64,000 bases of DNA from contig OX485803.1 of assembly GCA_950295325.1 (NCBI GenBank), forward strand, positions 63,255,554-63,319,553. The letters are read 5' to 3'. The notes under the pieces were generated by a model. That model did no database searches and was not told the origin of the DNA. It saw only the letters and a list, made by a program, of their open reading frames with translations. The stretch is from Polytrichum commune (lineage: Eukaryota; Streptophyta; Polytrichopsida; Polytrichales; Polytrichaceae). Every line of letters begins with the position of its first letter. The first letter of the stretch is position 1. A program made the position numbers and the translations under genes. Below, piece after piece: positions 7,830 through 24,565 of the stretch.

Positions 7830-7835
7830 CTTGTA

Positions 7836-7863
7836 ACACTATATTCGGTATTTGGAGACTTTT
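7836..7863 (+). repeat. Left terminal inverted repeat of the 16.4-kb element
   Basis: Begins ACACTATATTCG and ends GGAGACTTTT. Preceded by the target copy CTTGTA at 7830-7835. Confidence 0.85.
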
Positions 7864-8235
7864 TGTTGATTATGAGACTATATAAGGATGCACATTTCAA
7901 AATTGGACCGGTAATGACGACTAAAAATCCCATATGTATAATGGTATGCTACTATTATTATACATAAAGGCATGGAAGTGAACAAAAATGTGAGGCATAC
8001 ATGAAAATAGTTGCGTATGAAAGACAACTCGTTATGAATGGAAGGGAAGATGCGAAGAATGAATGGAAGTTGAATGAATTAATTGGGATTGAAATACAAT
8101 TATAATGGAAATACCATCAATGTCTTGAGTAACTTGCAATAGCATAGAAAGTAAGCACTTAAATATGTTCTACACCTAAGCCCATTTAGGGAGTCCGTCC
8201 CACTAGTACGCTTCTAGTCACACTAGTCCGACCCA
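7864..8235. other. Left subterminal region, no gene
   Basis: AT-rich and non-coding. Two short direct motifs (CCCACTAGTACG and CACTAGTCCGACCCACTA) lie near 8198-8236, followed by two T-runs. Confidence 0.4.
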
Positions 8236-8252
8236 CTATTTTTTTTTTGCGG

Positions 8253-9222
8253 CTAAGTCCTTTTTTTTGGCGGCCTCCATGACTCTAAAAATCTCAGGCC
8301 CACGACTGTATCCTTGTGTGTTGCCTGGACATGAATATGTGTCGTTCTTGCATGTTTCAGGACGCGCTCCCGAATTGTAAGAGGTGGTATTATAAGTAGA
8401 ATGCGAGGGTGTTTGCGAAAGGGAACGTCTTGCGCTTCTCCGGAGGGCCAGACAACGATCGGACTCGGAAGATGCGGCCTTGAGGGTGTGCCTATCCAAG
8501 GAGGACGTGGAGGAGGGCCGGGCACCAAGCGAGCGGGTAGCCACCTGCGAAACAACGTCATAGGAAGATAAGAATAGGAATGGAGTGGGGAAAATAATGA
8601 GGGCGGTTTGGGATGGGCGCTCGTAAAGAGAACGGCACGCAAACGGAAGACAAGGGAAGCAAAAGCGGGAAAGGGGTTTAGGGTTGAGGAGGGCACCTTG
8701 GCTTTGGGGACGTCCATGTGGGGAACGGTGGGAACGAGGGGGGCGTCGACGGGAGCATCCGGAGCCGATGGAACTATTGTATTGGTGAGTGGCGGGGGGG
8801 AGTCGAGGCGTGGAGGGCCCACGATGGCGGAGGACGTTGCGGGGGGAGGAACGGAGTCGGCGGGGGAGGTGTGGCAACGGGGGCCTTCCATGCGGAGACG
8901 CCGGCTCGGCCCGCGATGAGCGACGCCGTCGTCCTTAGAGGGCGAGAGGTGCCCCAAACGAACGAGCGTCCGTTTCTCCTTGGAGAGGGGGGAGGGCGAC
9001 GGGGTGTAGGCGCGGGCGACAAGTGCGGGGGGTGGGCTGTTGACGATGCCATCGTCGATGCCGACGTCGCGGGAGTAATCCACGGCCGAGGCCGCGTCGA
9101 CCGCCGAGAATTGGTAGAGGGATGGCATTTGGAAGTCCGTGACGTCGCGGGAAGGGGAGGCAGGTGGCGAGAGGGGACGGGAAGGGCCGTCGACCACAGG
9201 GGCGTCGCATATGGGGGCAGAC
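8253..9222 (-). CDS. Doubtful proline/serine-rich exon, hypothetical
   Basis: This is a GC-rich open frame of about 314 codons. Its N-terminal part is rich in Pro, Ser and Asp and has no domain I recognise. There is no ATG at its head, but a T-rich tract followed by CATAG lies just upstream (about 9222-9275), so it could be an internal or 3' exon; a donor-like AAG|GTGCCC occurs near 8697. A degenerate copy of the element palindrome lies in frame at 8957-8976. It lies downstream of the stop of the FCP1-like exon on the same strand. It may be non-coding, since GC-rich DNA gives long frames by chance, and the opposite strand is also open over part of it. Confidence 0.3.
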
Positions 9223-9228
9223 TATGGT

Positions 9229-9275
9229 CAACAACAATCACAACAACAATCACAACAACAATCACAACAACAAAA
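9229..9275 (+). repeat. CAACAACAATCA short tandem repeat
   Basis: About 3.5 copies of a 12-bp unit. On the minus strand it reads TTGTTG-rich and could serve as a pyrimidine-rich tract before a splice acceptor. Confidence 0.85.
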
Positions 9276-9345
9276 GACATCCAAAAATGAAGCAAGCATT
9301 AGTAAATGTGAACCACATGATACAAAGCAAAGACATGGAGGCATT

Positions 9346-10113
9346 TCAAATCAATTTATTGAGTTTGGCGAGCCTCATGATGCTCTTGAATACATTATCA
9401 CGGGGGCTTAAACCCACATTGCCTATGGGGTTGGACCTAACAAAAAATGGTATGCTACCGGCGTGGACAACAAGCCTTCTAAGGTAAGGCGCTAGCGTAT
9501 CGACAAAAAACGTGTCGTTCCTATCGCCGGTCCAAGTGGCGGGGAAGATGACGTTCCCCGGGGGGTTCAAGACGCTTTTGGTGGGGCTGTCGTCGACGAG
9601 GACGGTGTTCTCGAGGGTCGGCCACCACCCGTGGGGTACCCCCTGCAACCGGGGGATGCCCCGCCACAGTCTTGACCTCAGGACCTTGAGGAATTGTTGT
9701 CCTCCGCCACGACCGCCGAACTTTGGAACCGGCAGACCCTTTTCGTCGAGCAATTCATCGCAATCCTCTTGGCCGAGGATGAGGCAAGGGCTCGGAAGAT
9801 CGCGGAAGAGGAAGTCGACGATTGGCTCGGTGTTCTCCATGACCATGGAGCTCCACACAATGACGTGAGCTACATCGAGCACCTCTCGAAGGAAGTCACG
9901 CAGGCCGGGACGGGCGCGGACAGCCTTGCGGTTAATGAGAGTGTCGAGCTCTCCGTCGTAGTCCCTTTCGTCGGGGTGACGGAAGGGACGCGTGGGGACC
10001 CGGGGGATGTGTTCGGTGTGACACAACACCCCGTTCAGGTCGAACACGACGAACGGTTTGTTTCGGGTAAGATGTCCACTGGTCGAGGGTTTCCGACCTA
10101 TCTCCGGGGGATC
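9346..10113 (-). CDS. FCP1/NIF-like HAD domain exon (C-terminal exon or separate gene)
   Basis: The 768-bp exon follows the acceptor ATCACAG at 10114-10120 and encodes 255 residues and a stop. HAD motifs are clear: motif I as FVVFDLNGVLCH, motif II as HVIVWSSM, and motif IV as NTVLVDDSPTKS, followed by the NIF-type ending APYLRRL. In FCP1/SCP/TIM50 phosphatases motif I is DxDGT/DLDET. Here the second Asp, the general acid/base, is Asn, so catalysis may be weakened or absent. The nearest known families are CTD-phosphatase-like proteins acting on phospho-Ser; the substrate here is unknown. The exon has no start codon of its own before the domain, which supports its being spliced to an upstream exon. 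Confidence 0.75.
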   Translation of the reverse strand, partial: DPPEIGRKPSTSGHLTRNKPFVVFDLNGVLCHTEHIPRVPTRPFRHPDERDYDGELDTLINRKAVRARPGLRDFLREVLDVAHVIVWSSMVMENTEPIVDFLFRDLPSPCLILGQEDCDELLDEKGLPVPKFGGRGGGQQFLKVLRSRLWRGIPRLQGVPHGWWPTLENTVLVDDSPTKSVLNPPGNVIFPATWTGDRNDTFFVDTLAPYLRRLVVHAGSIPFFVRSNPIGNVGLSPRDNVFKSIMRLAKLNKLI

Positions 10114-13100
10114 CTGTGATTAACAACTCGACTAGTTTAATTCTATGATCCAATAAACAACATTGCATTGAGGAAAAGACGATTATGCGAGGAAAATAGT
10201 GCAAGGAGAATGTGGTCAAGTGCAGACTTGCGAACGAGCGTTCGTGAATGAAGGCTGGGGTGGCGCATCATTTACGAACGCTCGTTCGTGAGCGCGGATA
10301 GAAGCACATGTACGAACGCTCGTTCGTAAAGGAGGGTGAAAGTGGGCGTGAAAGTGTAATGATGCGCATGAACATACATAATACAAGATGCGATACGATA
10401 TAATAAGTTTGGGAGATGCGACGCAGAGATCATCTGCTCATATATTAATTCGGTGAATATTTACAATTGTCTCACGTGATAATTTTTCACAGTTTCCTAT
10501 GGCAAATACATGCCGTGTTCTACAAAATTTATCGGGCTAAGGGTCCACGTAGAGAAGGGTCCTCGCACGCCTCGTGATGCTGATGGACAGGAACCGCCAA
10601 GAACACAACGCGCATGGGTTAGTGGTTACGAACGCGCGTTCGTTAAATGAGTGGTATTCTCAGAGGAGAGTTACCTCGTCATCGGGGGGAGGGGCAGCGG
10701 TGCTGGACCGAGCAGTTCCCTCCTCTTCGATTAACGAACGCGCGTTCGTAATCCCCATTGGGCCAGCCGCCTCTGTCTCCATGGTGTCTGGGGCACGCTC
10801 CGACTGTGACGCCTGGGTCTGCACAATGTGATCCGCGTCGTCGTCGTCATCTCCGCCCAGGTCGAGAGTGTCCATGCGGACATCCTCCATCTCCGCGGAT
10901 GGATGCCGTTCCAGGTCAGGGCTCTCAACGTCCATTCCTTGGACAGCTACCGCATCATTGGGGCTCCCCTGCGTTTCCTCCACAATGACCATGTCAGTGT
11001 GTTGCGCAGATTCATCGCCTTGCCTATGCACTACCCTCGGGACCACTGTCAAAGAGGCGGTGGCAGTGACTGAGGCCAGTCCTACCCTTGGAGGGGGAGG
11101 GGTTAGGACTGCCGGACACGAAGATTTACGAACGCGCGTTCGTAAATCTTCGTCCTCGCGTATGGCAGCCCTTATCGCATCGTGCGAGTTGACGGGGGTG
11201 GCAGTCAATTGAAGGGGCGGAGGACTCCCAGCTGGCGTTGGGTGTGGTGCTGGTGGGTGCGAAGGTCCTCCGGGGAACAGGCCTGGAGGGGGGGTATGGG
11301 AGGGGTATCCTCCGGGGAAGGGGTAAGGCTGTTGTGCTGGCGCCGAGAAGCTCTGCATATTTCTGAGCATCTCAAATATGGCGTCCGTCTTTGTTGCGGA
11401 CTCCCGCAGCGCCTCCTGCATGCGGGCCATATTTCTTGCACTCTCCTCTGCCGCAGCCGTCATTTCCTCCTTCATTTTTTGTTCTAGCTTGGCATTCAGC
11501 TCGGCAACCGTCAACGCCTCCTCCTTCACACGCTTGTTCTTGTCGTAATCCACCCCCAGCTCCGCCATGATGTCCATGTCCCCTTCGTCCTCGTCGGACA
11601 CCTCGATGATTGCTCCCTCCGGCAACTCCACGTATGGCGTCTTCTTCATCCTCCTCCTCGTGTTCCGGAAGTGGTCCAAGGATGGACGCGAGCGTTGGTC
11701 GAGGAGGTCGAGGGTCTCCATCCTCGGAACCACGACGGGCCTGGGAGACACTAACGTCGAACAGCCGCCAGGTGTGCCGAAGGGTTCCGCACCCGACACT
11801 CTAGCGGGGAGGACATCCTGGGTTGTCCCAGCCGAGGATCCTGTATAGCCCCCCGGTGTCCCTTGGGGGTCAGACGGGTGACCCGCTGGCGCCAACATCC
11901 GTAAAGGAGTGATGTTGAACGACTGCAAGATGGCGTCCACGTCCACGTCCACGGAGGGGGCGGGCTCGTCCTCGTCTGTCTCCAAGCCCGGCATGCCTTC
12001 GTCGACGGGCATGCTGAAGTCCTCCCTGGGGACACACATGTCATCGAGGTCCATTGTGGACGCTTTCACCCTGTGGACCTGGTATTCATCCTCGTCTTGG
12101 GCGTCAACGTAGTTATTGACGACCAACCCCAGCATCTGTACCAACGTTCCAAACATGTCAGCATATACGAACGTGCGTTCGTAAACATCAACATTGAGAC
12201 AAGGCCAGATCAACGCAAAGGGAAAAAATGCCACAACTATTATAACATTTGAATCAATGACAATTACGAACGAGCGTTCGTAAATCTAAGAATGACAGCT
12301 TACCATGGCCGCGTACATGAACTTGCTGCCTCCAAAGATGTTGTAGACAGTCTCTCCACTGATTGCCAAACTCTGCAACACTGACACGTAGAACTCCAAC
12401 CTGAGCTCCAACGCGGGGAAAACCGTGTACAGTGTCTCCTGCAACAGTTCCTTGGGAGGGGGGTGAGGGATGCTGTATATCTTCTTGAAAATATTGTTTG
12501 CCTTCACAGGCGCTCTCCCATTTCTGAGAGCATTGTACGTTAAGAAGATCAAGCTAACAGCTCCCACCTGCTTGTTTCCCCTGGCCTCGTTGATGGCCAC
12601 GATCCCTTCCGTTTTTGCGGGCACGTAGGTGCTGTGGTAGATGCTGTATTCAAATTTGATGGTATTTTCGTACAGCTCAGTGACAATGGATAGCTTCTCC
12701 TGTTCCACTATCCAAAGCCATACGTGAGGCTCCCTCATTTCAGGCGATCTGTAGTCTTGAAACTTTGCCATGAAAGGGTTGTAGAAGGGAAAATCCTTTG
12801 CCCCTTACCTCGCACCTCCTGGGATCCCCCTGAAATCAATCAGGGCAAATGGGCAACCCCTGCGGTCCTCCCTCACCTCGGCCCTGCTGATGGTGCAGTC
12901 CCACTTAGAAAAAGTGGCCCTCTCCAGCCCGGTGGTTACCAAACAAAACCTGGCCACTCCCTCGAATGTGGCCCTCCGCTTCCTCTCCAAAAACTTTATA
13001 TACAACTCCACCTCCTGGGGATCTGTCTCTGCTTTCTTGGTCCGCTTGTTCCCCTTCAGCTTCAAGACGGAGGCGTGTTCCTTAACTAGCCTACGCATGG

Positions 13101-15040
13101 AAGAGCCGTTGATGTTATACCCGACCTTGAACTCCTTCCATCCAACCCAGTTGATGTCCCCGTCGGCCTCGAAGAGTTTGTACTCCGGGACTAGTGCTCC
13201 CAACTCCCTCATTGCGTTGGTCTTCAACTTGCGATGTTCGCACCACTCCTCGATGGAGTACGTTCCAGGCCTGTGCTTTGGCCTCTTCAAAAAAATCTTC
13301 GGGTAGGGGATTGTGCTCCCGACGGTGTTCCCAAGAGCATGAACTGCACATCTCTGCAATTCCGACTCCGTCAACCCCTGAAGCGGCCTAAAAAATTCCC
13401 TCAGCAGCGGAGGCGCTTCCCCAGTCTTCTCCTGATTATATTTTTCTTCAGTGTCGGGGTTGACGAGATCCCCCGCACTGTGAGCATCAAAAAATTGGGT
13501 CCACAAATCCCAGGTGTCTCTGTTGCAACAAATAAGCCGGAGCTCACCCTTCAGCTCGAGCACTGACTTCGTTGAAGTGGACTTCATGTCGATGGAAGAG
13601 AATTTGTCCACCATCGCATCGCAAAACGCCTGCATTAGAAAGGAATGTCATCGGTCAATCAAATACGAACGCACGTTCGTAAATAAAATGATCAGGAATG
13701 TTCTAAAGGAACCTGAGAATTACGAACGCTCGTTCGTAAACTTACCTTCCATTGTGGAGACTGGTTTTTCGCATTCTCCCTCTCCTTTGGTGGGCACCCG
13801 TGTGCCACCCACACGTCTCTCGCAGCCACTATGTTTGCTGCCCATGATGCCTCAAACGCTTTGATCTTATTCCCAGAATTTAAAAATGTCGAAATTTTCC
13901 GGAGTTTGTCCCAGTCGTCTGACCACACCAGGAACACCTTCCAGTAGCGCAGGTCTCCCTTCAGCTCATGCTGGAAGTTATCATCCTTGAGGATGATCTG
14001 CGATGCCTCCAGGCTGTGCTGTCCATCAATAATCCAGAACTCCCCATTCTGGATTCTTGCCCAATCTTTCTCCGTGGGACGGGAAGTGAAACCCTTTGGC
14101 ATAACGCACACAGTTTGCCTATCCCACTTCACGTTATTCATCAAGTTGTTGATTTGCCACTTCACACCTCCGCTTTCACGTGACCTCACCACCCACTTGT
14201 TGGGGGATTTCTCGCATTTGAAGCAGTCCACGTTGAAGGTGAAGTGCCGTCCCATGGGCCAGCAATCCTTCGAGTAATTGTTGAAGTCGCGAAGGATACG
14301 AGTCGCCTTTGCCGCATCAGGGTTTTCCCCCTTCTTCAAAGGGGTCGGCATGACAGGCGGCGAGTTGACCTCAGCTGTCTCCGTGACACCAGACTTCTCC
14401 ATATCGTCCCGAGTTCTTTTAGATGGCGTGGAGTGTCTGCTTGGTCCCTCTGACAATCTGCTAGCTGAAGGCACTGGCCGCGGCGCACTTCTAGAACCTC
14501 CTATTCCGGATGCAGTAGGTTTTTTGGGACTCTTCTTCTTCTTGTTGGCCTCCACGACGGCACTGTTATACTTGGACATATTTAGGGCCAGTGCAGTCAA
14601 CTTCCTGGCTGTCCAATGCTGGCTGAGGCTGTACTTCGTGAAAAGGTTCACGAGGTCGAAATGCTTGGCATCCTCTACAACATTATTCTGTGCGTATGTA
14701 TGGGAGAAAGGGTGCCTCCTGAAGTCCAGCAGGAGGTTGATGTGGTCTTTTTGTTTTTCAAATCCAAGATAACAAAATCACCCTGTGCCTCTATGGATTC
14801 TATCTCCCATGTCTTCATCTGCACCCACTGCTCCGGCTGGTCTGGCCTTGTCTCCAACTCGTATGTGAATCTCAGGGCGAACAATCCACCCTCGATTTTC
14901 TCCGGGAGCGCCGTCCACTCCCCCATGAAGTCATCTTTGGGGACGTAATTATCGTTCCCATTGTCATCTGTCACTGACTCCGGAAGCCGATCCAACTGAA
15001 CCGCGAACATTTCGATTGTGCTCCTGACTGGTCTAGCCAT
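9346..15040 (-). CDS. ParB/DGQHR-like domain joined to FCP1-like HAD domain, 4 exons
   Basis: Exons on the minus strand: 15040-13746, 13629-12304, 12135-10675, 10113-9346, all joined at GT-AG with phase 0. The predicted protein has about 1,616 residues. Exon 1 ends with a region containing GEFWIIDGQHSLEAS, which resembles the core of ParB/Srx-type and DGQHR proteins. Exon 2 has no domain I can name. Exon 3 begins acidic and is Pro/Ser-rich in its second half, with a helical, coiled-coil-like stretch (EELNAKLEQKMKEE-type). Exon 4 is an FCP1/NIF-like HAD domain. Two defects are present: a one-base loss in an A/T run at 14748-14758 and an in-frame TAA at 12805-12807. The start is the ATG at 15040; an upstream GTG is ignored. 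The join of exons 3 and 4 across a 561-bp intron is inferred from phase and splice signals; the HAD exon could be a separate gene. Confidence 0.6.
10114..10674 (-). other. Predicted intron 3 with four palindromes
   Basis: Donor GAG|GTAACT at 10674 and acceptor CACAG|GAT at 10114. Palindrome cores lie at 10231, 10275, 10313 and 10629. If a short extra exon exists here I could not establish it. Confidence 0.5.
10229..10329. repeat. Three CGAACGNNCGTTCG palindromes
   Basis: Cores at 10231-10244 (centre AG), 10275-10288 (CT) and 10313-10326 (CT). They lie in predicted intron 3, 38-44 bp apart. Confidence 0.95.
10627..10752. repeat. Two palindromes at the exon 3/intron 3 border
   Basis: Cores at 10629-10642 (intron side) and 10735-10748 (inside exon 3), both with centre CG. 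The exonic copy is translated on the minus strand as ITNARSLIEE without breaking the frame. Confidence 0.95.
11118..11153. repeat. Perfect 36-bp palindrome inside coding exon 3
   Basis: The core CGAACGCGCGTTCG (11129-11142) is extended symmetrically to ACGAAGATTT on the left and its complement on the right, 36 bp in all with no mismatch. It is read in frame on the minus strand as DEDLRTRVRKSS. Confidence 0.95.
12136..12303 (-). other. Intron 2 with two palindromes
   Basis: Donor ATG|GTAAGC at 12303 and acceptor GGTACAG|ATG at 12136, 168 bp. Cores at 12168-12181 (centre TG) and 12267-12280 (centre AG). Confidence 0.75.
12805..12807 (-). other. In-frame TAA in exon 2
   Basis: The frame is otherwise open from 13629 to 12304 and reads PGGAR-stop-GAKDFPFYNPFMAKF across this codon. 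It is either a real nonsense mutation, a base error, or part of an unrecognised mini-intron starting at GAG|GTAAGG. Confidence 0.85.
13630..13745 (-). other. Intron 1 with two palindromes
   Basis: Donor AAG|GTAAGT at 13745 and acceptor AATGCAG|GCG at 13630, 116 bp. Cores at 13666-13679 (CA) and 13723-13736 (CT). The donor is followed directly by the first palindrome. Confidence 0.85.
14748..14758 (-). other. Frame change at a homopolymer in exon 1
   Basis: Upstream the frame reads GDFVILDLKNKK; downstream a different frame reads DHINLLLDFRRHPF and continues to the exon end. One extra A in the CAAAAAG run (minus strand) would restore the frame, and the exon length (1295 nt) is exactly one base short of phase 0. 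Confidence 0.75.
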
Positions 15041-15071
15041 TTGCAATGTAACAGACACATTCAGAATTGCA

Positions 15072-15473
15072 TTTACGAACGCGCGTTCGTTACTGACATT
15101 TGCAGGTCGTCAATAAATTATTTATTATTCGCAAGACATCTGTTGGTTCTTGTTTACGAACGTTCGTTCGCAAATTTGGTTTGATTTCCAAGGTGTTATT
15201 CATTTTCAATAAATACGAACGCACGGTCGTATTTGAGTGCTGTGATGTTCATATGGCGTAATCAAAAGGTGTAGGGTTCGTTTTTATTTTCATTTTTTGG
15301 GCTCATTTTTATTAGTTTTTGGGTACACATATTTGTGTCCATGCCTTTGTGTAGATTTACGAACGCGCGTTCGCAAATCTTGGGTGTGTTTGGATCCCTG
15401 GTTACGAACGATCGTTCGTAAATCTAGGATATTGATGTGATTCAGTGTTTGTTCACGAACGGACGTTCGCAAA
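15072..15473. repeat. Six palindromes upstream of the ParB-like gene
   Basis: Cores at 15076, 15157, 15216 (one mismatch), 15360, 15405 and 15456. The first lies only 36 bp upstream of the ParB-like start codon, so some may act as operator-like sites in its promoter or 5' leader. Confidence 0.9.
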
Positions 15474-15497
15474 TACAAGATGTTCCTTATTTAATCA

Positions 15498-15750
15498 ATT
15501 ACGAACGCACGTTCGTAAAAGTAGAAGGTGAGCGCATATTTTACGAACGCACGTTTGGAAAATTAGAAGGTGAGTGGGTATTTTACGAACGCACGTTCGT
15601 AAAGGTGGAAAGTGAGTGGGTATTTTACGAACGCACGTTCGTAAAGGTAGAAGATGAGTGGGTATTTTACGAACGCACGTTCGTAAAAGTAGAAGGTGAG
15701 TGCGTATTTTACGAACGTGCGTTCGTAAAAGTAAAGGGCTTGGTGTATTA
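15498..15750. repeat. 42-bp tandem array, one palindrome per unit
   Basis: Six units of 42 bp carry cores at 15502, 15544 (one mismatch), 15586, 15628, 15670 and 15712. The spacer reads AAGGTAGAAGGTGAGTGGGT with variants. The period is exactly 42, so both strands stay open and give repetitive YERTFVKVEGEWVF-like frames that I do not regard as a protein. Confidence 0.95.
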
Positions 15751-15767
15751 GATGTATAAACGCCACA

Positions 15768-15862
15768 TTTACGAACGATCGTTCGTAAATGTGGTCGTCT
15801 GTGTATGATAATAAATGCTTTCCGTACATATACGTATACATATACATACGTATACGTATGTA
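15768..15862. repeat. Palindrome plus alternating ATACGTAT tract
   Basis: Core at 15772-15785 (centre AT) within a longer palindrome flanked by CACATTT and AAATGTG. An alternating purine-pyrimidine tract follows at 15823-15862. Confidence 0.85.
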
Positions 15863-16279
15863 TGGGTTTATGAATGTTGCTATCGACATTGCTTGGATTT
15901 TTGCCTGCAACTCTTGATCAGAATGATGAAACACAAAGTGAAATATGTAATGACAACAACATTGAGATTCAGTGATTAAGAATTCATAATGAAGGGGAAA
16001 GTCCTAATTCATACAAAACATGACAAAGCTCATAATGCATAAAACATGACACATGGAATTCAACAAAGAACAATTTCAGATTGCAAAGAAGTGTTTTGAA
16101 AAGGAAACCTGTACTCACATTGAATTGTTGCAAACCCAAAACCTGCTGCCTGCTACTCAGAAATCCAGAAACCTCACAAATGCACTGATTTCGCTTTCAA
16201 ATGCAATTTCTACCCTTGCTCCTTTCTCACACTCTCAAGCCTTCAGAATTTATTTACAAATCCTACAAATATTCTGATG

Positions 16280-16450
16280 TAAACACAACTCACAAGCTTT
16301 CTGAAACTCTCAAGCTCTCAAGCTTTTTGCAACACTCAACCTCTCAAGCTTTCTAAAACACTCAACCTCTCAAGCTTTCTAAAACTCTAAACCTTCTCAA
16401 GATTTCTACAAATATCAACCTCTCAAGCGATCCTACTCTCAAGCTTCTGA
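16280..16450. repeat. Degenerate minisatellite of CTCTCAAGCTTTCT units
   Basis: About six imperfect copies of CAACCTCTCAAGCTTTCTAAAACACT-type units. No function is apparent. Confidence 0.75.
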
Positions 16451-16636
16451 CAATGCGCGCCAAGAATAAACATAAAATGCGGCTATACAAATGGCCAGGG
16501 CTTCGCCGCACCTAAGCTCTCCCCTCCTCCTCTGCTCCAAATGACAAATGAGGAGGAGAGGAAGAGGCGCGGGGAGGTAGCCGGCACCGCTAGGGTTTCC
16601 TGGCGGCTGCCACGTGGCTGACAGCCACTGGCCAGG

Positions 16637-16762
16637 GCTGGGATGGGGGAGGGGATGGGGATGCGGATGGGGATGGGGATGGGGATGGGGGAGGGGAGGG
16701 GATGGGGAGGGAATGGGGATGGGGATGGATGGGAGGGGAATGGGGATAGGGAGGGATGAGGG
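16637..16762 (+). repeat. GGGGAT-type G-rich minisatellite
   Basis: GGGGAT and GGGAGG units repeat for about 125 bp, giving many G-runs on the plus strand able to form G-quadruplexes. Confidence 0.85.
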
Positions 16763-16921
16763 TTTACGAATTAAGAAATACGAAATGGTGGGAGCTTAGT
16801 TCGGGGACATGAATTTTACATTCCGTATCCCCTTAATACCTCTACAGTTGGATTCCTTGTAAACATATTTTAGAAAAATATGTTCAGTTAATTTGTACAA
16901 CACAATGCATGTCATTTAGTA

Positions 16922-17150
16922 GGTTTTCGATGAAGAATCCACCCCAATGTGTGTATGGTGTTTTGCAAAATAGAGTTTTCATGAACCACACATCCTTAAA
17001 GTTGTTCAATGGTTCCTCAAACAAATTTTACATACATAAAGGACGCATTTTGAATTGTGGAGAGGGGCTATCAGATTCTCCTCAAGAGGTGGGGGAAAAT
17101 TCATTTTTCAATACGATGTCATTAATTTCATGAGGTGTTAGCTTGACCCA
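16922..17150 (+). repeat. Diverged direct repeat, copy A
   Basis: Resembles 18024-18255, sharing AATCCACCC, GTTCAATGGTTCCT and ATAAAGGAC in the same order. The copies are about 1.1 kb apart and both lie inside the 16.4-kb element. Confidence 0.75.
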
Positions 17151-17206
17151 CCCTTAATATGATATTTAGTGTTAGATACTCTAAATACGAACGCATAGTA
17201 CACTAA

Positions 17207-17733
17207 GGGCCTGTTTAGACTTGGGGCCAAGGCCATTGTGAACGAAGGCCAATATGTCCCATGTGGCATGCAAATGGGCCCCCAAGGCCATTAATAAGAA
17301 AGTAACCTAACTCCATTCATTGCTTTCATGTGTAAACCTATTTAGGTGGGGTTGGGGCCATTTGGAGGTTGCAATTATGAGAGGGTTATGAGAGGTTCCA
17401 ACGTACTCATGAACTATTCTATGGATAATGATTAAAGTATAATAAATTTATAATTTCTCCCCTCCTACTCAATGCTCAAAGAATAAACTACTATAAGCGA
17501 ATAAAAGCTCTAACAATGGCCTCAACAAGAGGGAAAGAGTCCACAATGTTGGGAGCTCTCTTTTCCAAGGCTTGAGGCCATTGTCATGATGAATAAAATA
17601 ATTTATTTGTGATTGGCCCCAACTCATGGTGTAAACTTGAAGAGGAAAATCCTAGCCTTTCTACCAATGAGAGGCGTGGATTTCCTTCACCCCAACCCAT
17701 TTTTGAGCCTTGACTCCAAGTCTAAACCCGTCC
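17207..17733. mobile_element. PIF/Harbinger-like MITE, 527 bp
   Basis: Ends are GGGCCTGTTTAGACTTGG and the complement of GGACGGGTTTAGACTTGG. The flanking TAA at 17204-17206 and 17734-17736 is the 3-bp duplication expected for PIF/Harbinger (TWA). There is no transposase. It is inserted inside the 16.4-kb element and is therefore younger than it. Confidence 0.85.
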
Positions 17734-17806
17734 TAAGTATCACTAACGATCTAAACCCTAAGCCTGCAAACCACATATTAGACAACTTTCACAAACCATA
17801 TACACT

Positions 17807-17848
17807 AACCCCAAACCCCAAACCCCAAACCCTAAACCCTAAACCCTA
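17807..17848. repeat. Interstitial telomere-type repeats
   Basis: About three CCCCAAA variant units followed by three CCCTAAA units. Confidence 0.9.
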
Positions 17849-18023
17849 CATCTTTTTATCTTACCAACCCTTCTTAGGAGGTCAAGTCATTTAATTAGTT
17901 GTCGACTTGAACTAACAAACGAATACTAGTGCCATCAACTTTAAATTTCACCAATGATCAATTGCATTTAAACTTGTAGTTCATAATATGGTCCGATGTT
18001 TGGCGAGCCTCAAGTGTAGGGGG

Positions 18024-18255
18024 TGGATTCAAATGAAAAATCCACCCGCAAGCATGTGTATATGGTGTTTTAAAATATAATTTTTTCATGGACAATATGT
18101 CTTTCAAGGTGTTCAATGGTTCCTTAAAAAAAAATTATTGGATAAAGGACTCAATTTCATATTGTGGCGAGCCTGCGCTATCCTAAACCTTTACAAAAGG
18201 TGGAGGAAATTCTATTTCTCATAGGACGTCAAACACATGATATTAATAATTGTAA
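18024..18255 (+). repeat. Diverged direct repeat, copy B
   Basis: Partner of 16922-17150. Confidence 0.75.
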
Positions 18256-19185
18256 GTGTGACTTCACGTAGGCATGGTTTCAATTCTTATCATTATCGTA
18301 TGCACCGTTCCAAAGTGATTGATCATTTCCAATCATGTCATTTTAATTCATTATTTTCAAACCTAGTGTTACATTTGAATGAAGACCTTGCCTACATATA
18401 TTGGGTATGATTACTTCAAAATGTCCTCAATTTACCTAGTACAAACCATTATGGATTAAGCGACTTTTTATTGGTATTCATGCAGTTGGTGACCATATTA
18501 CGGGCATTTTTTTTATGTGAATCATATGATACCTACAATTTTAGGGGCTTCCACAACATGTTTTTAGCTACTCTTACCTTATTGTGCATGTGAATATGTA
18601 TTACCCTAAACCCTTCATCACTTTATTAGGTATAATCAATCGTCAATTAACTTGGACTTCACACCTTAGTTGCAAATCATTTAAATTCAATGTTAACCAT
18701 AAACCTATATAGACATTATAAATCTAATATTATATATATGTGTATATATAATATAATATAATACAATATACAATATGAAATTCATATATACATATAAATA
18801 TAGACATATATTCACGTGAAACCTTGGTGACAACTAAGGTGTGCGACCGATTGACATATTTACAATATGTTGCGTGCATGCAAGACATGTTCCATACATA
18901 ATGCTATTTATTTATTCCGCATGGATGGAATGGCATATTGTTAGGTCAAAGTAGGCGGCGGGAATCCGCTTTTTAAATAGCATCCAAGGGATTTTGAACC
19001 ATCAGGGGGGAGGTACTTAAAGCTCTGCCCCCCACATCAGAGCTCTTTTCTGCGGCACAACCAAGTGTGCGCTCCACAGACCTGACTGGAACGAGCACAA
19101 ACCATTTTCTTGTGCGCCCACCCTATACCTCCCAGGTACACAATAGGTTGCACATACCCGCATATACCGCCGCAAATACCGGACT
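18256..19185. other. AT-rich intergenic DNA of the element, no gene
   Basis: Includes an AT microsatellite-like stretch at 18728-18815 (ATATA and AATAT units). No coding signal was seen. Confidence 0.5.
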
Positions 19186-19905
19186 TTTACGAACGCACGT
19201 TCGTAAAGATGACTTGGTAGTGACATGTGATGCGAGTGGTTTAGACATGTAGTTTAGACGAGTGGTATAGACGAGTGGTTCAAACATGTGATGCGAGTGG
19301 TTTACGAACGTGCGTTCGTAAGTAGAGCATTAGACATACTCAGCGTAGATTTACTTACAGGTAGTCACAGGCACAAAATGTTCAATTATATACGAACGTG
19401 CGTTCGTATATATTTCCTTCCAGATACAGGCGCACGTAAGTTGTTGTGATGCGAGTGGTTTACGAACGTGCGTTCGTAAGTAGAGCATTGGACATACTCA
19501 GCGTAGATTTACTTACAGGTAGTCATAGGCATGAAAATGTTCAATTATATACGAACGTGCGTTCGTATATATTTCCTTCCATATACAGGCGCACGTAAGT
19601 TGTTGTGATGCGAGTGGTTTACGAACGTGCGTTCGTAAGTGGAGCATTGGACATACTCAGCGTAGATTTACTTACAGGTAGTCATAGGCACGAAAATGTT
19701 CAATTATATACGAACGTGCGTTCGTATATATTTTCTTGGAGATACAGGCGCATGTAAGTTTGTGTAATGCGAGTGGTTTACGAACGTGCGTTCGTAAGTA
19801 GAGCATTCGATAATACTCCACGTTGACCTACTTATAGGTAGTCGTGGGCGCTAAAATGTTCAATGATATACGAACGTGCGTTCGTATATTTTCCTCCTAA
19901 CCCTC
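19186..19905. repeat. Palindromes in a 158-159-bp tandem array
   Basis: Four units start at 19291, 19449, 19608 and 19767. Each holds two palindromes, one flanked by TTTA/TAAG and one by TATA/TATA, 88-90 bp apart: cores at 19305/19393, 19463/19552, 19622/19711 and 19781/19871, all with centre TG. A separate palindrome lies at 19190. The units are nearly identical, so the amplification is recent or homogenised. Confidence 0.95.
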
Positions 19906-19964
19906 AAAGACACCTACGCTCCCGTGACTCTGTTATGTCCAACTGAACATATGATGGTCTGGTA

Positions 19965-20566
19965 TTCACGAACGTGCGTTCATAAATATCAATTGATATT
20001 ATTTTGCAATTATACAGAAACATCCGTTCATTTATGCACATGCCTCCTACTACTACGCTATAGATGTTTCTTCTGATGGGTCAACATTTTTACAAACACG
20101 ATTAGGGCTAGAACACATGATTGATCGTTCGTATGCATACGCCCATATGTTTCGGCCAGGACTTACGAACGATCGTTCGTATACATACACCCTTGAGTTT
20201 AGGCTCTACCTTGGGTTCGGTCGTTCCTAGATACACACCCGTCAAAGACATGCCCTTCAATTACGATGCTTGTTGCATGTGGATAATGATGCAGGTGCAT
20301 TTTGGGTACTCCTGAGCAATGCACGTTGCTTATCCCTTTTACAATTCATTGTTTGTTGGGTTGATATTCTCGTCCGCGTGTTCGTGAATATATGTGCGTA
20401 TGCTCTCCTTTGTTGGTTGGCAACACTTCCCATGTTTTATTAGCAAATCGACCCAAAACCCTTCACGGTTAATATGTACCACAATTGCATGCTGTTGTCC
20501 ATTGGTGTGTGACTCCCACGTAGTATTTGCTTGTCATGGCGTTGTTTTCGAACGCACGTTCGTCTT
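19965..20566. repeat. Three more palindromes before the DUF7869-like gene
   Basis: Cores at 19969 (one mismatch), 20166 and 20549, plus half-sites at about 20123, 20213 and 20365. The last core ends 145 bp before the start codon at 20707 and may lie in the promoter or 5' leader. Confidence 0.9.
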
Positions 20567-20706
20567 CATATGTGAGGTCCCCCAACGGTGCCGCGAGAGT
20601 TGTTTGTGTTTTTTGAGCCATATATCTACACAGCTCTCGTTTTCGCTTTTGTGTGCATTGCGGTGCTTCTTGTTTTGGTCATTGATTAGTGGTTTGCTTA
20701 GGTTGG

Positions 20707-23670
20707 ATGGCGCTGCCCGTGGCATATAGTTCATTGGAATTGTCCACAATTTCTTCCTCCTCCGATGGTGAGTGTGAACTTTCTTCCCCTTCGGCGGGTT
20801 GTAATGGTCTGCCAAACGTGATGGGGGAGTTTGTGGATATATCCTCCCATGAATCTTTAGAAGTGCACGAACAATCTCTACATTCCAAGGATGACCACGA
20901 TGACATTCCGTTGTGTGCCGGTTTCAGGAGGGAGCAATGGGTTGGCCTTGATGTCGTCTTACTCAACGACATTGGTGTCCCTGTGGCAGATGGCATATGT
21001 AGAAACTCTGATCCCCGTGATTGTGTGGATGCCAACCCCCTTGGTCCGAACGATGTTGGTGTGTGCATCTTGAATTCATTGCTTCCGCTTGAGGTCCCGG
21101 TGACATGGAGATTTTCCTTGCGTCGATGGCCTTTTTGTCGGGTTCTCCATGACGGAGTGAGCTTGTTGGACCATGAGCGGCGCCATAAGCAAACACAATT
21201 AGCTTTGTTGGCCAAAATACGTCCTCACAAAGGCCTACGCAAATATGATTCGAACCGTGTGCCTCGAGGAGATAAGGAGCGTCGACAGGATCGCATATTG
21301 GGAGACGAATCTATCCGTCTTGTGTCCGCCAAAGACTGTTGCTATCGGAAATGTTGCCAGTTTTTCCCACGGGAGAAAATTAAGTCCCTACGTCAAGAGA
21401 CGTGGCTGGCCGATTTCCGTATGAGATCGGCAAAGAAACTCGAGGTCCATAGAAATGTGCACATTGACACCCATGGGCATAAGGTGGTCACACTTGAGAA
21501 TGTGGATGTGTGTTGTACCGCGTGGTATACCATCCACGCCGTGTCAAAGGCTGACTTTTATAGGTTTCAAAAGTATTCATCGTTGGGTCGCCGCTCACAA
21601 TTTCATGGAAATTCGGGCACAAAGAAACCTCGGGAGGCTACACTCCAAGCCTCCGCGACACTCTCCACCATCATAGTCCCATTGGCCGATGCAATGCCCT
21701 ACAAGACGAGGACATTGTCGTCAGGGAAGAAAGTTGTACAAATGGTGTTGCCCACAGGTACAAAATGGAAGAACATATTAACGGACATTAACGAAGTGGG
21801 TCGCATAGCGGGATGTGGTCACATTTCTTTGTCCAAGTTGAGTGTAATTAAAAACCAACAGTTTGCTGAATACATTTTGAAGAGACCTGGGGACAAGTTC
21901 GCTAGGTGTATGACGTGTGAAAAATACAAAGGTCTTCGAGACGCCCACCCCATAGGCACCGAATCCCACTCCAGACACCAAGCAAAATATATTGAACATG
22001 TCAACAACCAAGAGGCTCACCGTCAAGATTACTACAAGAACCGTGCTCTATCCATAATGAGGCCTACAGAGGTTCTAACAATCATCCATGACAAAATGGA
22101 CCACGCCAAGACCGCATGCCCTTGTTATGCACGGAAAATAAAGGCCACGGATGGACTCTTCAAGTTGCCCGTAGCTGTCACAGGTTTGTAGGAAATCACA
22201 AATATGTGTTCAAATTCTATCCAATTTTACTAGATGTGTTTGCGTTAGGTTTCAACTTCACACATCCGTTTAGGGTTGTTGTTGTTATTGTTGTCATTCA
22301 TGGATCGTTTGTTTTTTCCCAGGGATGATTGCCCACGGACATGGAGACGTTAAGTATGCCCATTATGGTCTGGATTTTTACCCTAGCGATGCTAACCACA
22401 CGGTGGGATCATTTGCAAAACTCTTGCGCAATCTTGAGAAGCCACCGGTACATTCATCACGTGCATTGTTTGATGGTTGTGGAACGACACCCCTTTACGA
22501 AGCACTGCTTGCGGGGAAGGAGGTTTGTATGTCGTCATTGCCGGAGCCACCCGGAGAACCTCTTTGTGCGAAACCTTTGCCTCCAACTCTCCACGTTCAA
22601 CTTGATAATTGTGCGAAGGACAACAAATGTCGATATGTATTTTGTTTTTGGTCCTTGCTTGTGGCGAAAGGAATCTTCAAGGAGGTGTTTGTGTCTTTCT
22701 TGATGGTGGGACACACACACGATGACATTGATGCGTCTTTCGGACGGTGGAGCATGAAGTTGCATGAAGAAGATTTTCCAACCATACCACTTCTTATGAA
22801 ATCGTATATGGATTTGGACCATATGCCGGTAATTCCGCACATGATTGAGGAAGTACCAGATTTCAAGGCCTTCATCAAGCCATACATGTTGAAGGGAGGG
22901 GACCGTTTGGTGGGACATACCAAAGCACAACAATTCCGATTCTTTATAAGGGATGATGGTCTCCCGGCCATGCAATTTAAGCTTTTGTGCACATCTCCTA
23001 ATTGGGGCCCGGATGATGGTATACTCATATGGCGTCAAAACAATGATGGGAAATGTTTGCTCCCGGATGGGGATCCAAAGCCTTGCAAACCCGACCCCAT
23101 GAGGAATGGGCCGGAAATCATCAAAGGCATATCCGGATTCATTGAATATTGGAAAGAGTTGTGTGAGGAGGACATCACTAGACGTGTTAGAGATACTCAT
23201 GAACCTTTGATTGCGTATTGGGATCGCATTCGCTCGGCCCTAATGACACTTGGTGGCGACACCCGTACAACTTTAACACAAGGATTTTGGCCACAAAACC
23301 GTTTAACGGTTGTCGAGTCCGACACCATTTTTTTAGCAATGGAGACGTTCGTGAAGAGTTCGCAATGGACGAGCATTACGTTGGCCCTGCCCGAGATCGA
23401 CCGGCACCGTCGTTTCGTGTAGGTGTTGATTGCCATGAAGGTTATTTGGTCCTCGTACGAGCAGGGGATGAGGAGCATCCCAAGCCAATTTGGTTGGTGA
23501 AAGCATTGTCTTCACCCAATTTTGTTCGAACTAGCCCCAACTTTCGTCAAATTGAGGTGGAATATTGTCGTCCAAGCACTAAAGACCAAAACGTGCTACG
23601 CACTTATTTAGGTTGGGACACCAAAAAGAATTTTAAGTGGATAGTGGACTCAGCGTACACACCGGTTTAA
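20707..23670 (+). CDS. DUF7869-like protein, candidate transposase, 2 exons
   Basis: Exon 1 is 20707-22183 and exon 2 is 22323-23670, joined ACAG|GTTTGT...TTCCCAG|GG, about 941 residues. The N-terminal 90 residues are Ser/Asp-rich. A Cys-rich segment (DCCYRKCCQFF) may bind metal. The C-terminal half has, in order, IIHDKMDHAKTACP (near residue 460), VQLDNCAKDNK (near 584) and VGHTHDDIDASFGRW (near 620). I know this order from the eukaryotic family labelled DUF7869 (from memory), and it suggests an RNase H-like acidic triad. Exon 2 changes frame once, probably at the T7 run 23328-23334; one extra T gives 942 codons including stop. Being the only transposase-like gene in the element, it is the best candidate for moving it. 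Function is not proven. Confidence 0.7.
23328..23334 (+). other. Probable frame-change site in exon 2 (T7 run)
   Basis: Before it the frame reads NRLTVVESDTIF; after it a different frame continues DVREEFAMDEHYVGPARD to the stop at 23670. Total exon length is one base short of a whole number of codons. Confidence 0.55.
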
Positions 23671-24218
23671 ATAAACACGGATATTATACTTTGTGCTTTG
23701 AAGCCGTGCAAAGGTTCCAAAACAGAAACAATGACCATCCCCCAAAAACATATAGATTTTGCCAAAGACAACTTGGCACGTATTGCAGCTGCGGTAAATG
23801 ACGCCGAGAATGGATATGAAGCGGAAGATGGAGATGTGTAAACATAACATATTAGGTGGGAGTTAATGGCGAAAAACATGGGCGCTTAGTAGACTTGGTT
23901 TTTATTAGACTTAGTGGACTTGTCACACTCCATTGTTGTATACGTTTGGGATGTGCCATCCAAATTCATAAGAGCTTTACTTATGGGATGCGCACCCCAA
24001 ACTCTATAATGACATAAACCAATTGTTTTTTTAGAATTGATTGTTATTTTCCACAAAGAGCTCACGTTTTCATTTTAATTGAAATTCTCTATTTTTAGTA
24101 ATAAGAATATGCTTTACATGTAAAATTTTAAATCGTCATGTTCTTGATGTTCCCAATATTCCGTATGCCCACAATATTGGCATCCCAAACCATGGGCATA
24201 TTTTATTTTGAGACTTTC
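23671..24218. other. Right subterminal region, no gene
   Basis: Non-coding. A short inverted repeat GAGACTTT/AAAGTCTC abuts the right terminal repeat (24210-24226). CCCAATATT and AATATTGG form another small inverted repeat near 24150-24180. Confidence 0.5.
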
Positions 24219-24246
24219 AAAAGTCTCCGATTAACGAATATAGTGT
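24219..24246 (-). repeat. Right terminal inverted repeat of the 16.4-kb element
   Basis: Ends CGAATATAGTGT on the plus strand, the complement of the left end. Followed by the target copy TTTGTA at 24247-24252. Confidence 0.85.
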
Positions 24247-24565
24247 TTTGTAGCTCCTTTGGTTCATAATGATGGTACATACTTCTTTATTTCTCTCAAA
24301 TTCTATTCCTAGGCAATAATGCAACTCTCTGAGATTGCTCATTTCAAATTATTTCTTGAGCTCCGATTTGAGTCACTTCAATTGGGTTACATTGATTGCA
24401 AATATGATCAAATCATCCATGTAGAAGATTGTTACGCACAAATACTCACCCATTTGTTTGACATACAACAAATGATCCACTTGGCACTTACAAAATCTCC
24501 CGTTGATGAAGAACCAATTGATACAGTGGTACCATGCCCTTGGTGATTGCTTGAGTCCGTACAAA

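What the first reader, a model, noticed from the sequence alone, without database searches (positions are those of the whole stretch)
7836..24246. A 16.4-kb DNA transposon with exact ends, apparently of an undescribed type
Seen: 28-bp terminal inverted repeats (25/28 identical), a 5-6 bp target duplication, and clean interruption of a copia pol remnant whose two halves lie on either side. The empty site reads in one frame (NQRSYKRFNMEKYKPVG). Cargo is a ParB-like/FCP1-like gene and a DUF7869-like gene, a combination I do not know from any named superfamily. The TSD and ends do not fit CACTA (3 bp), PIF (3 bp) or hAT (8 bp), and no Polinton genes are present.
Basis: partly seen in the sequence, partly recalled or inferred. 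Interest (0 to 1): 0.95.

Follow-up and report, generated by a model that had tools for sequence, protein, structure and literature searches.

The report
Plant transposon carrying arrayed palindromic self-tags
A large, many-copy plant jumping gene carries a bacterial-style DNA-binding protein together with dozens of copies of a short palindrome that changes in step with that protein, which suggests the element recognises and marks its own DNA, probably to escape being silenced.

Summary
The finding is a real DNA transposon: window 7835-24247, 16,413 bp, ends AACACTATATTCG, target duplication exactly 4 bp (18 of 20 left/right pairs), not 5-6. 1,583 such ends lie in this 408-Mb, probably land-plant, genome (reversed control 13). 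One gene encodes a DUF7869 protein, the likely transposase. The divergent gene encodes ParB, methyltransferase-like and FCP1-phosphatase-like domains. Between copies its 14 specified bases vary at 6.8% of columns, the NN spacer at 29.7%, nearby DNA at 34.9%. Three clades of the ParB protein have three different palindromes, first read from protein tails, then found in DNA, while examined elements of all three keep the same ends and 4-bp duplications. Best explanation: the ParB protein recognises its own family's palindromes and acts on that chromatin or DNA, as VANC does for Arabidopsis VANDALs. Binding and outcome are inferred. ParB-methyltransferase accessory proteins are known from algal giant transposons; the matching DNA sites appear new. 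Sola membership could not be tested.

The parts
7831..7834 (.). left target-site duplication TTGT
7835..24247 (.). whole transposon, 16,413 bp
   Evidence: four copies aligned end to end
7835..7847 (+). left terminus AACACTATATTCG (outer part of the inverted repeat)
9346..10113 (-). predicted exon 4 of the ParB gene: FCP1/NIF phosphatase-like domain (PF03031)
   Evidence: dN/dS 0.16 against the C6 copy
10114..10674 (-). predicted intron 3, four palindromes (10230, 10274, 10312, 10628)
10675..12135 (-). predicted exon 3: linker without a Pfam family; two palindromes lie inside it (10734, 11128)
12136..12303 (-). predicted intron 2, two palindromes (12167, 12266)
12304..13629 (-). predicted exon 2: methyltransferase-fold domain; nonsense codon near 12805 in this copy
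   Evidence: fold from the relative P0122
13630..13745 (-). predicted intron 1, two palindromes (13665, 13722)
13746..15040 (-). predicted exon 1: N-terminal beta domain and ParB-like domain with DGQHS motif; frameshift near 14777 in this copy
   Evidence: fold from the relative P0122
15041..15800 (.). upstream region of the ParB gene with 12 palindromes, including a 42-bp-spaced array
19100..20706 (.). upstream region of the DUF7869 gene with 12 palindromes, including a 159-bp-unit array
20707..23841 (+). DUF7869 gene (putative DDD transposase), one predicted intron about 22184-22322; frame broken in this copy, open for 1,049 codons in the copy within C1:53130430-53146680
24235..24247 (-). 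right terminus CGAATATAGTGTT
24248..24251 (.). right target-site duplication TTGT

Best explanation
A cut-and-paste DNA transposon, about 16-19 kb in the intact copies measured, with two divergent genes. The DUF7869 protein is the transposase: it recognises the shared AACACTATATTCG ends and makes 4-bp staggered cuts. The second gene's protein (ParB domain, methyltransferase-fold domain, FCP1-like phosphatase domain) binds the palindromes scattered through the element's promoters and introns. It thereby tells its own family from the host and from sister families, and acts on that chromatin or DNA to keep the element's genes from being silenced (VANC-like anti-silencing). Shown: ends, 4-bp duplications, gene layout, palindrome array, constraint on the palindromes, and change of palindrome with ParB clade while the ends stay constant.
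Against: No binding or expression data. The DPPY catalytic motif expected of N4/N6 methyltransferases (recalled) is replaced by DFRxxP, so methylation may be lost. The phosphatase signature reads DLNGV, not the recalled DxDxT/V. Two exact A palindromes sit in B-type stretches. Nineteen of 45 relatives show no class-specific trace, one of them (P0150) an A-or-B trace. No divergent DUF7869 partner was found for the 53 B-type genes in two lists. Some window sites are lost or decayed in the C6 copy. Two of 14 dN/dS values are 0.39 and 0.82, on few changes, and one is undefined. The element's CpG content is not depleted (0.92 against 0.51), but a young insertion would look the same.
Confidence: 0.68

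Rival explanations
1. The palindromes are internal binding sites of the DUF7869 transposase, and the ParB protein does something else.
For: DUF7869 also diverges between families: P0006, 67% identical to the window protein, matches at 99% the DUF7869 locus C3:221564 that stands beside a clade-C ParB gene. Twelve sites lie upstream of the DUF7869 gene.
Against: The 13-bp ends are identical in the A, B and C elements examined while the palindromes differ. Sites occur in all three predicted ParB-gene introns, not next to the ends. ParB-fold proteins are known readers of 16-bp palindromes (parS; recalled).
Confidence: 0.14
2. Plasmid-like partition: the ParB protein loads on palindromes and spreads to tether or segregate an excised or episomal form.
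Against: No ParA-type family among the nine window ORFs scanned; 4-bp duplications show integrated elements; 24 of 35 sites lie upstream of the two genes and 8 in introns; a methyltransferase-fold domain lies in the same protein.
Confidence: 0.06
3. The protein is a transcriptional repressor of its own element (copy-number control), not an anti-silencing factor.
For: Sites lie directly upstream of both genes; a bacterial relative in the fold list, KorB of plasmid RK2, is described there as a transcriptional repressor.
Against: Eight sites lie in introns, four of them in intron 3 far downstream. 1,583 ends genome-wide argue against tight self-repression.
Confidence: 0.1
4. The palindromes are a neutral repeat that spread by tandem duplication.
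For: Two tandem arrays of palindrome-bearing units exist (42-bp and 159-bp units).
Against: 21 of 35 sites lie outside the arrays and are still constrained, while the NN spacer in the same sites evolves like the neighbourhood. Each protein clade has its own palindrome.
Confidence: 0.02

Closest known systems
Sola1-1_Ec32, a 21.5-kb Ectocarpus transposon, and the similar ParB-methyltransferase proteins it cites from green and red algal transposons (PMC12477816, passages read; the cited papers not seen)
   Same: Large DNA transposon; ParB-like plus DNA-methyltransferase gene on the strand opposite the transposase; the authors propose such proteins may bind and epigenetically modify their own transposon.
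   Different: Here candidate DNA sites are visible and change with the protein; the methyltransferase-fold domain lacks the expected catalytic motif; an FCP1-like domain is in the same gene model; the host is probably a land plant; homology of the transposases or of the accessory proteins was not tested.
VANDAL/VANC anti-silencing system of Arabidopsis (PMC5735166, abstract and two sections read; PMC10398659, abstract read)
   Same: Element-encoded protein; short motif repeated in introns and upstream regions, often in tandem arrays; motif differs between related families.
   Different: VANC has DUF1985/DUF287 and VANC21 reads the 9-bp YAGTATTAY; VANDALs are Mutator-like by recall. Here ParB and methyltransferase folds, long palindromes and 4-bp duplications, so apparently a convergent solution.
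Bacterial ParB-parS and KorB operator systems (recalled, apart from the fold rows)
   Same: ParB N-terminal fold and a 16-bp palindrome with a central spacer.
   Different: No ParA-type hit in the ORFs scanned; many dispersed sites; eukaryotic transposon; large extra domains.

Membership tests
Sola superfamily | 4-bp target-site duplication | tested here: met
   18 of 20 pairs and 4 of 4 further elements chosen by bracketing ends
Sola superfamily | terminal inverted repeats of 11 bp or more | tested here: met
   28-bp arms, 89% complementary; range from the review
Sola superfamily | DDD transposase | tested here: inconclusive
Sola superfamily | sequence homology to known Sola1, 2 or 3 transposases | not testable with these tools
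   No Sola sequence was available; the founding paper is not held
EnSpm/CACTA | 3-bp target-site duplication | tested here: not met
   0 of 20 pairs match at 3 bp, 18 at 4 bp
EnSpm/CACTA | ends begin with CACTA | tested here: not met
   CACTA occurs, but two bases inside the end that leaves a matching duplication (AACACTA)
VANC anti-silencing proteins | DUF1985 / DUF287 domains | tested here: not met
   No such Pfam hit in the window ORFs or in the four relatives scanned
ParB-methyltransferase transposon accessory proteins | ParB-like domain | tested here: met
ParB-methyltransferase transposon accessory proteins | N4/N6 DNA methyltransferase domain | tested here: inconclusive

The most novel reading that the evidence does not exclude
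A eukaryotic transposon superfamily has built a bacterial-style ParB-palindrome addressing system: each family carries its own protein and its own long palindromic address repeated dozens of times, so one genome hosts at least three self-recognition codes on elements that share the same ends and transposition chemistry.
Probability: 0.6. Interest if true: 0.9.

Novelty: new variant of a known kind. Interest (0 to 1): 0.82.

Why it matters
Published work proposed that ParB-methyltransferase proteins of algal giant transposons may bind their own element (passages); here are candidate addresses, with constraint and protein-linked change as evidence. It would be a second, apparently unrelated origin of sequence-specific self-recognition by transposons beside VANC. 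It also gives three natural protein/palindrome pairs in one genome on which specificity, nucleotide use and epigenetic effect can be tested directly, and candidate sequence-specific tools for epigenome work.

Tried and rejected
CACTA, PIF and hAT were rejected by duplication length. Palindromes as coding sequence were rejected: 33 of 35 lie outside predicted exons. Sequence-only searches named no methyltransferase or ParB family; only the fold did. Viral contigs: the DUF7869 patterns found no relative, paired A palindromes 0, and the ParB alignment was too diverse to search. DUF7869 is named in no held paper. Searches for ParB with transposon, giant, algae, 6mA, palindromic or moss found the Ectocarpus paper but, in the listings, no report of such palindromes; that covers only the open-licence library. 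Species not identified: an intact rbcL lies on a 146,561-bp contig and ranks plant Rubisco chains first in the PDB (which chain is from which plant is recalled), and seven contigs hold about 406 of 408 Mb. A Polytrichaceae moss is a guess from recall, and one search did not settle it. The peptide patterns were written after reading the proteins and one (GRST) is loose; shuffled proteins gave 0.2-0.4 hits per class. The DNA tests came later. The transposase fold rests on weak scores. The two exon-3 sites and the two pairs without a duplication remain unexplained. The P0006 list was not put into the linkage count.
Full report
What was checked. The window lies at C1:63255554-63319553 of a 408-Mb assembly of 64 contigs. 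Its element starts at AACACTATATTCG and ends at CGAATATAGTGTT: 7835-24247, 16,413 bp, flanked by TTGT on both sides. For 20 left/right pairs that I could match by position and strand from the scored ends have a duplication of exactly 4 bp and two have none. With the element and one TTGT removed, the flanks read through on the minus strand; one of three flank ORFs matches RVT_2 weakly.

Copy number. The first look gave 570 and 765 candidates for the two end stretches, of which 40 each were scored. The 13-bp end occurs 776 + 807 times genome-wide against 3 + 10 for the reversed pattern. That is roughly 800 element equivalents if each had two ends, fragments and all families that share the end included.

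The palindromes. ACGAACG-NN-CGTTCGT, often inside TTT...AAA: 27 exact, 8 with one mismatch, none outside the element even at three mismatches. Twelve lie upstream of the ParB gene, 12 upstream of the DUF7869 gene, 8 in the three introns of the ParB gene, 2 in exon 3 and 1 further left. Three other copies have 33, 37 and 29 sites at up to one mismatch. Across four copies up to 19.6% apart, with tandem arrays left out (21 of 35 sites kept), 18 of 264 site columns vary, 11 of 37 spacer columns and 442 of 1,266 neighbouring columns. Between the window and C6 copies: 17 of 290, 12 of 42 and 401 of 1,319. Including arrays the contrast is 41 of 424 against 681 of 1,637 neighbouring and 1,412 of 7,834 exon columns; CpG columns outside sites vary at 347 of 1,297, so a low CpG mutation rate does not explain it. 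Some window sites are lost or decayed in C6.

Protein and palindrome change together. The two searches found 45 ParB-gene relatives. Several predicted proteins run on into introns and so spell out the palindrome: A (as here) in 8, B (ACGGACG-NN-CGTCCGT) in 9, C (TTGGGTCG-NN-CGACCCAA) in 9 of 45; the other 19 show no class-specific trace, one of them an A-or-B trace. The A, B and C patterns hit 0, 0 and 1 of 120 DUF7869 proteins. On the exon-1 tree (38 rows, 25 labelled) the labels form three groups with 2 changes; near-copies make some clustering inevitable, so the DNA check matters more. In this genome the clade-C query gave 75 listed matches and the clade-B query 106. The 20 clade-C loci fetched carry C palindromes (179 exact) and no A or B, even at two mismatches. 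Eleven clade-B stretches from 8 copies carry B palindromes (9 of 11 at least one exact copy, the other two at one mismatch; 23 exact sites, plus 2 exact A and no C). A and B differ by two bases; C is quite different.

Same chassis. Clade-C ParB genes stand head to head with DUF7869 genes: 10 pairs within 25 kb among 45 and 41 listed loci, nine of them 6.5-7.3 kb and one 17 kb apart, all 10 divergent, chance mean 0.23, highest 3. With the P0009-type list there is one more C pair, also divergent. For clade B no divergent partner was found in the same two lists (one non-divergent pair in each). The right end of a C-type element ended in the same 13 bp followed by TGTT. A search for TGTT plus the end then found the left end 15.9 kb away at C6:14065947 (22 hits in the genome, 0 reversed). 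Two B elements, one C element and one element located by its DUF7869 gene, chosen because ends listed bracketed them, have exact 4-bp duplications TTGT, CACT, TTAG and TATA. So the ends are constant while the palindrome is not.

Reading. The constant ends fit one transposase chemistry. The palindromes fit a second, changing recognition: a ParB-fold protein and its own sites. In Arabidopsis, VANC proteins bind a repeated motif in introns and upstream regions of their own VANDAL family, and related families have different motifs (PMC5735166, abstract and two sections read). The layout here is strikingly similar with an unrelated protein. The Ectocarpus paper proposed self-binding and self-modification for ParB-methyltransferase proteins (passages) without, in the passages I saw, naming sites. 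Whether this protein methylates is doubtful because DFRxxP stands where DPPY is expected (recalled motif).

Limits. No expression, methylation or binding data. Only best-scoring loci were examined and the whole-genome palindrome scan did not complete. Sola membership is open.

Noticed in passing
window 16001-19100: The middle of the element has no palindromes; its 16001-18000 part has CpG observed/expected of only 0.37 against 0.92 for the whole element, and an 84-bp repeat lies 1.1 kb apart there. It may be captured or nested DNA.
   Followed up: partly
L035 (C2:18354-18685): Two element ends abut with only two bases between the conserved end sequences, perhaps an insertion at or next to another element's end.
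   Followed up: no
L094:1133 and L095:1166: One exact A-type palindrome sits close to the ParB start in two B-type elements that otherwise carry B palindromes.
   Followed up: no
C4:3131748 and C3:13779897; P0006-type DUF7869 copies: A very uniform DUF7869 family (87 listed copies at 96-100% identity, mostly without stops) has two copies with the same end about 530 bp beyond the match, and looks recently active.
   Followed up: partly
C5:10810243-10842770, C6:33625596-33658018, C7:25078852-25121348: Copies of 32-42 kb between ends that share a 4-bp duplication, probably holding nested insertions.
   Followed up: no
window 8236-9298: Long overlapping open frames on the minus strand between the FCP1 exon and the left end; long frames stand there in the other three copies too. 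Not searched against any library.
   Followed up: no
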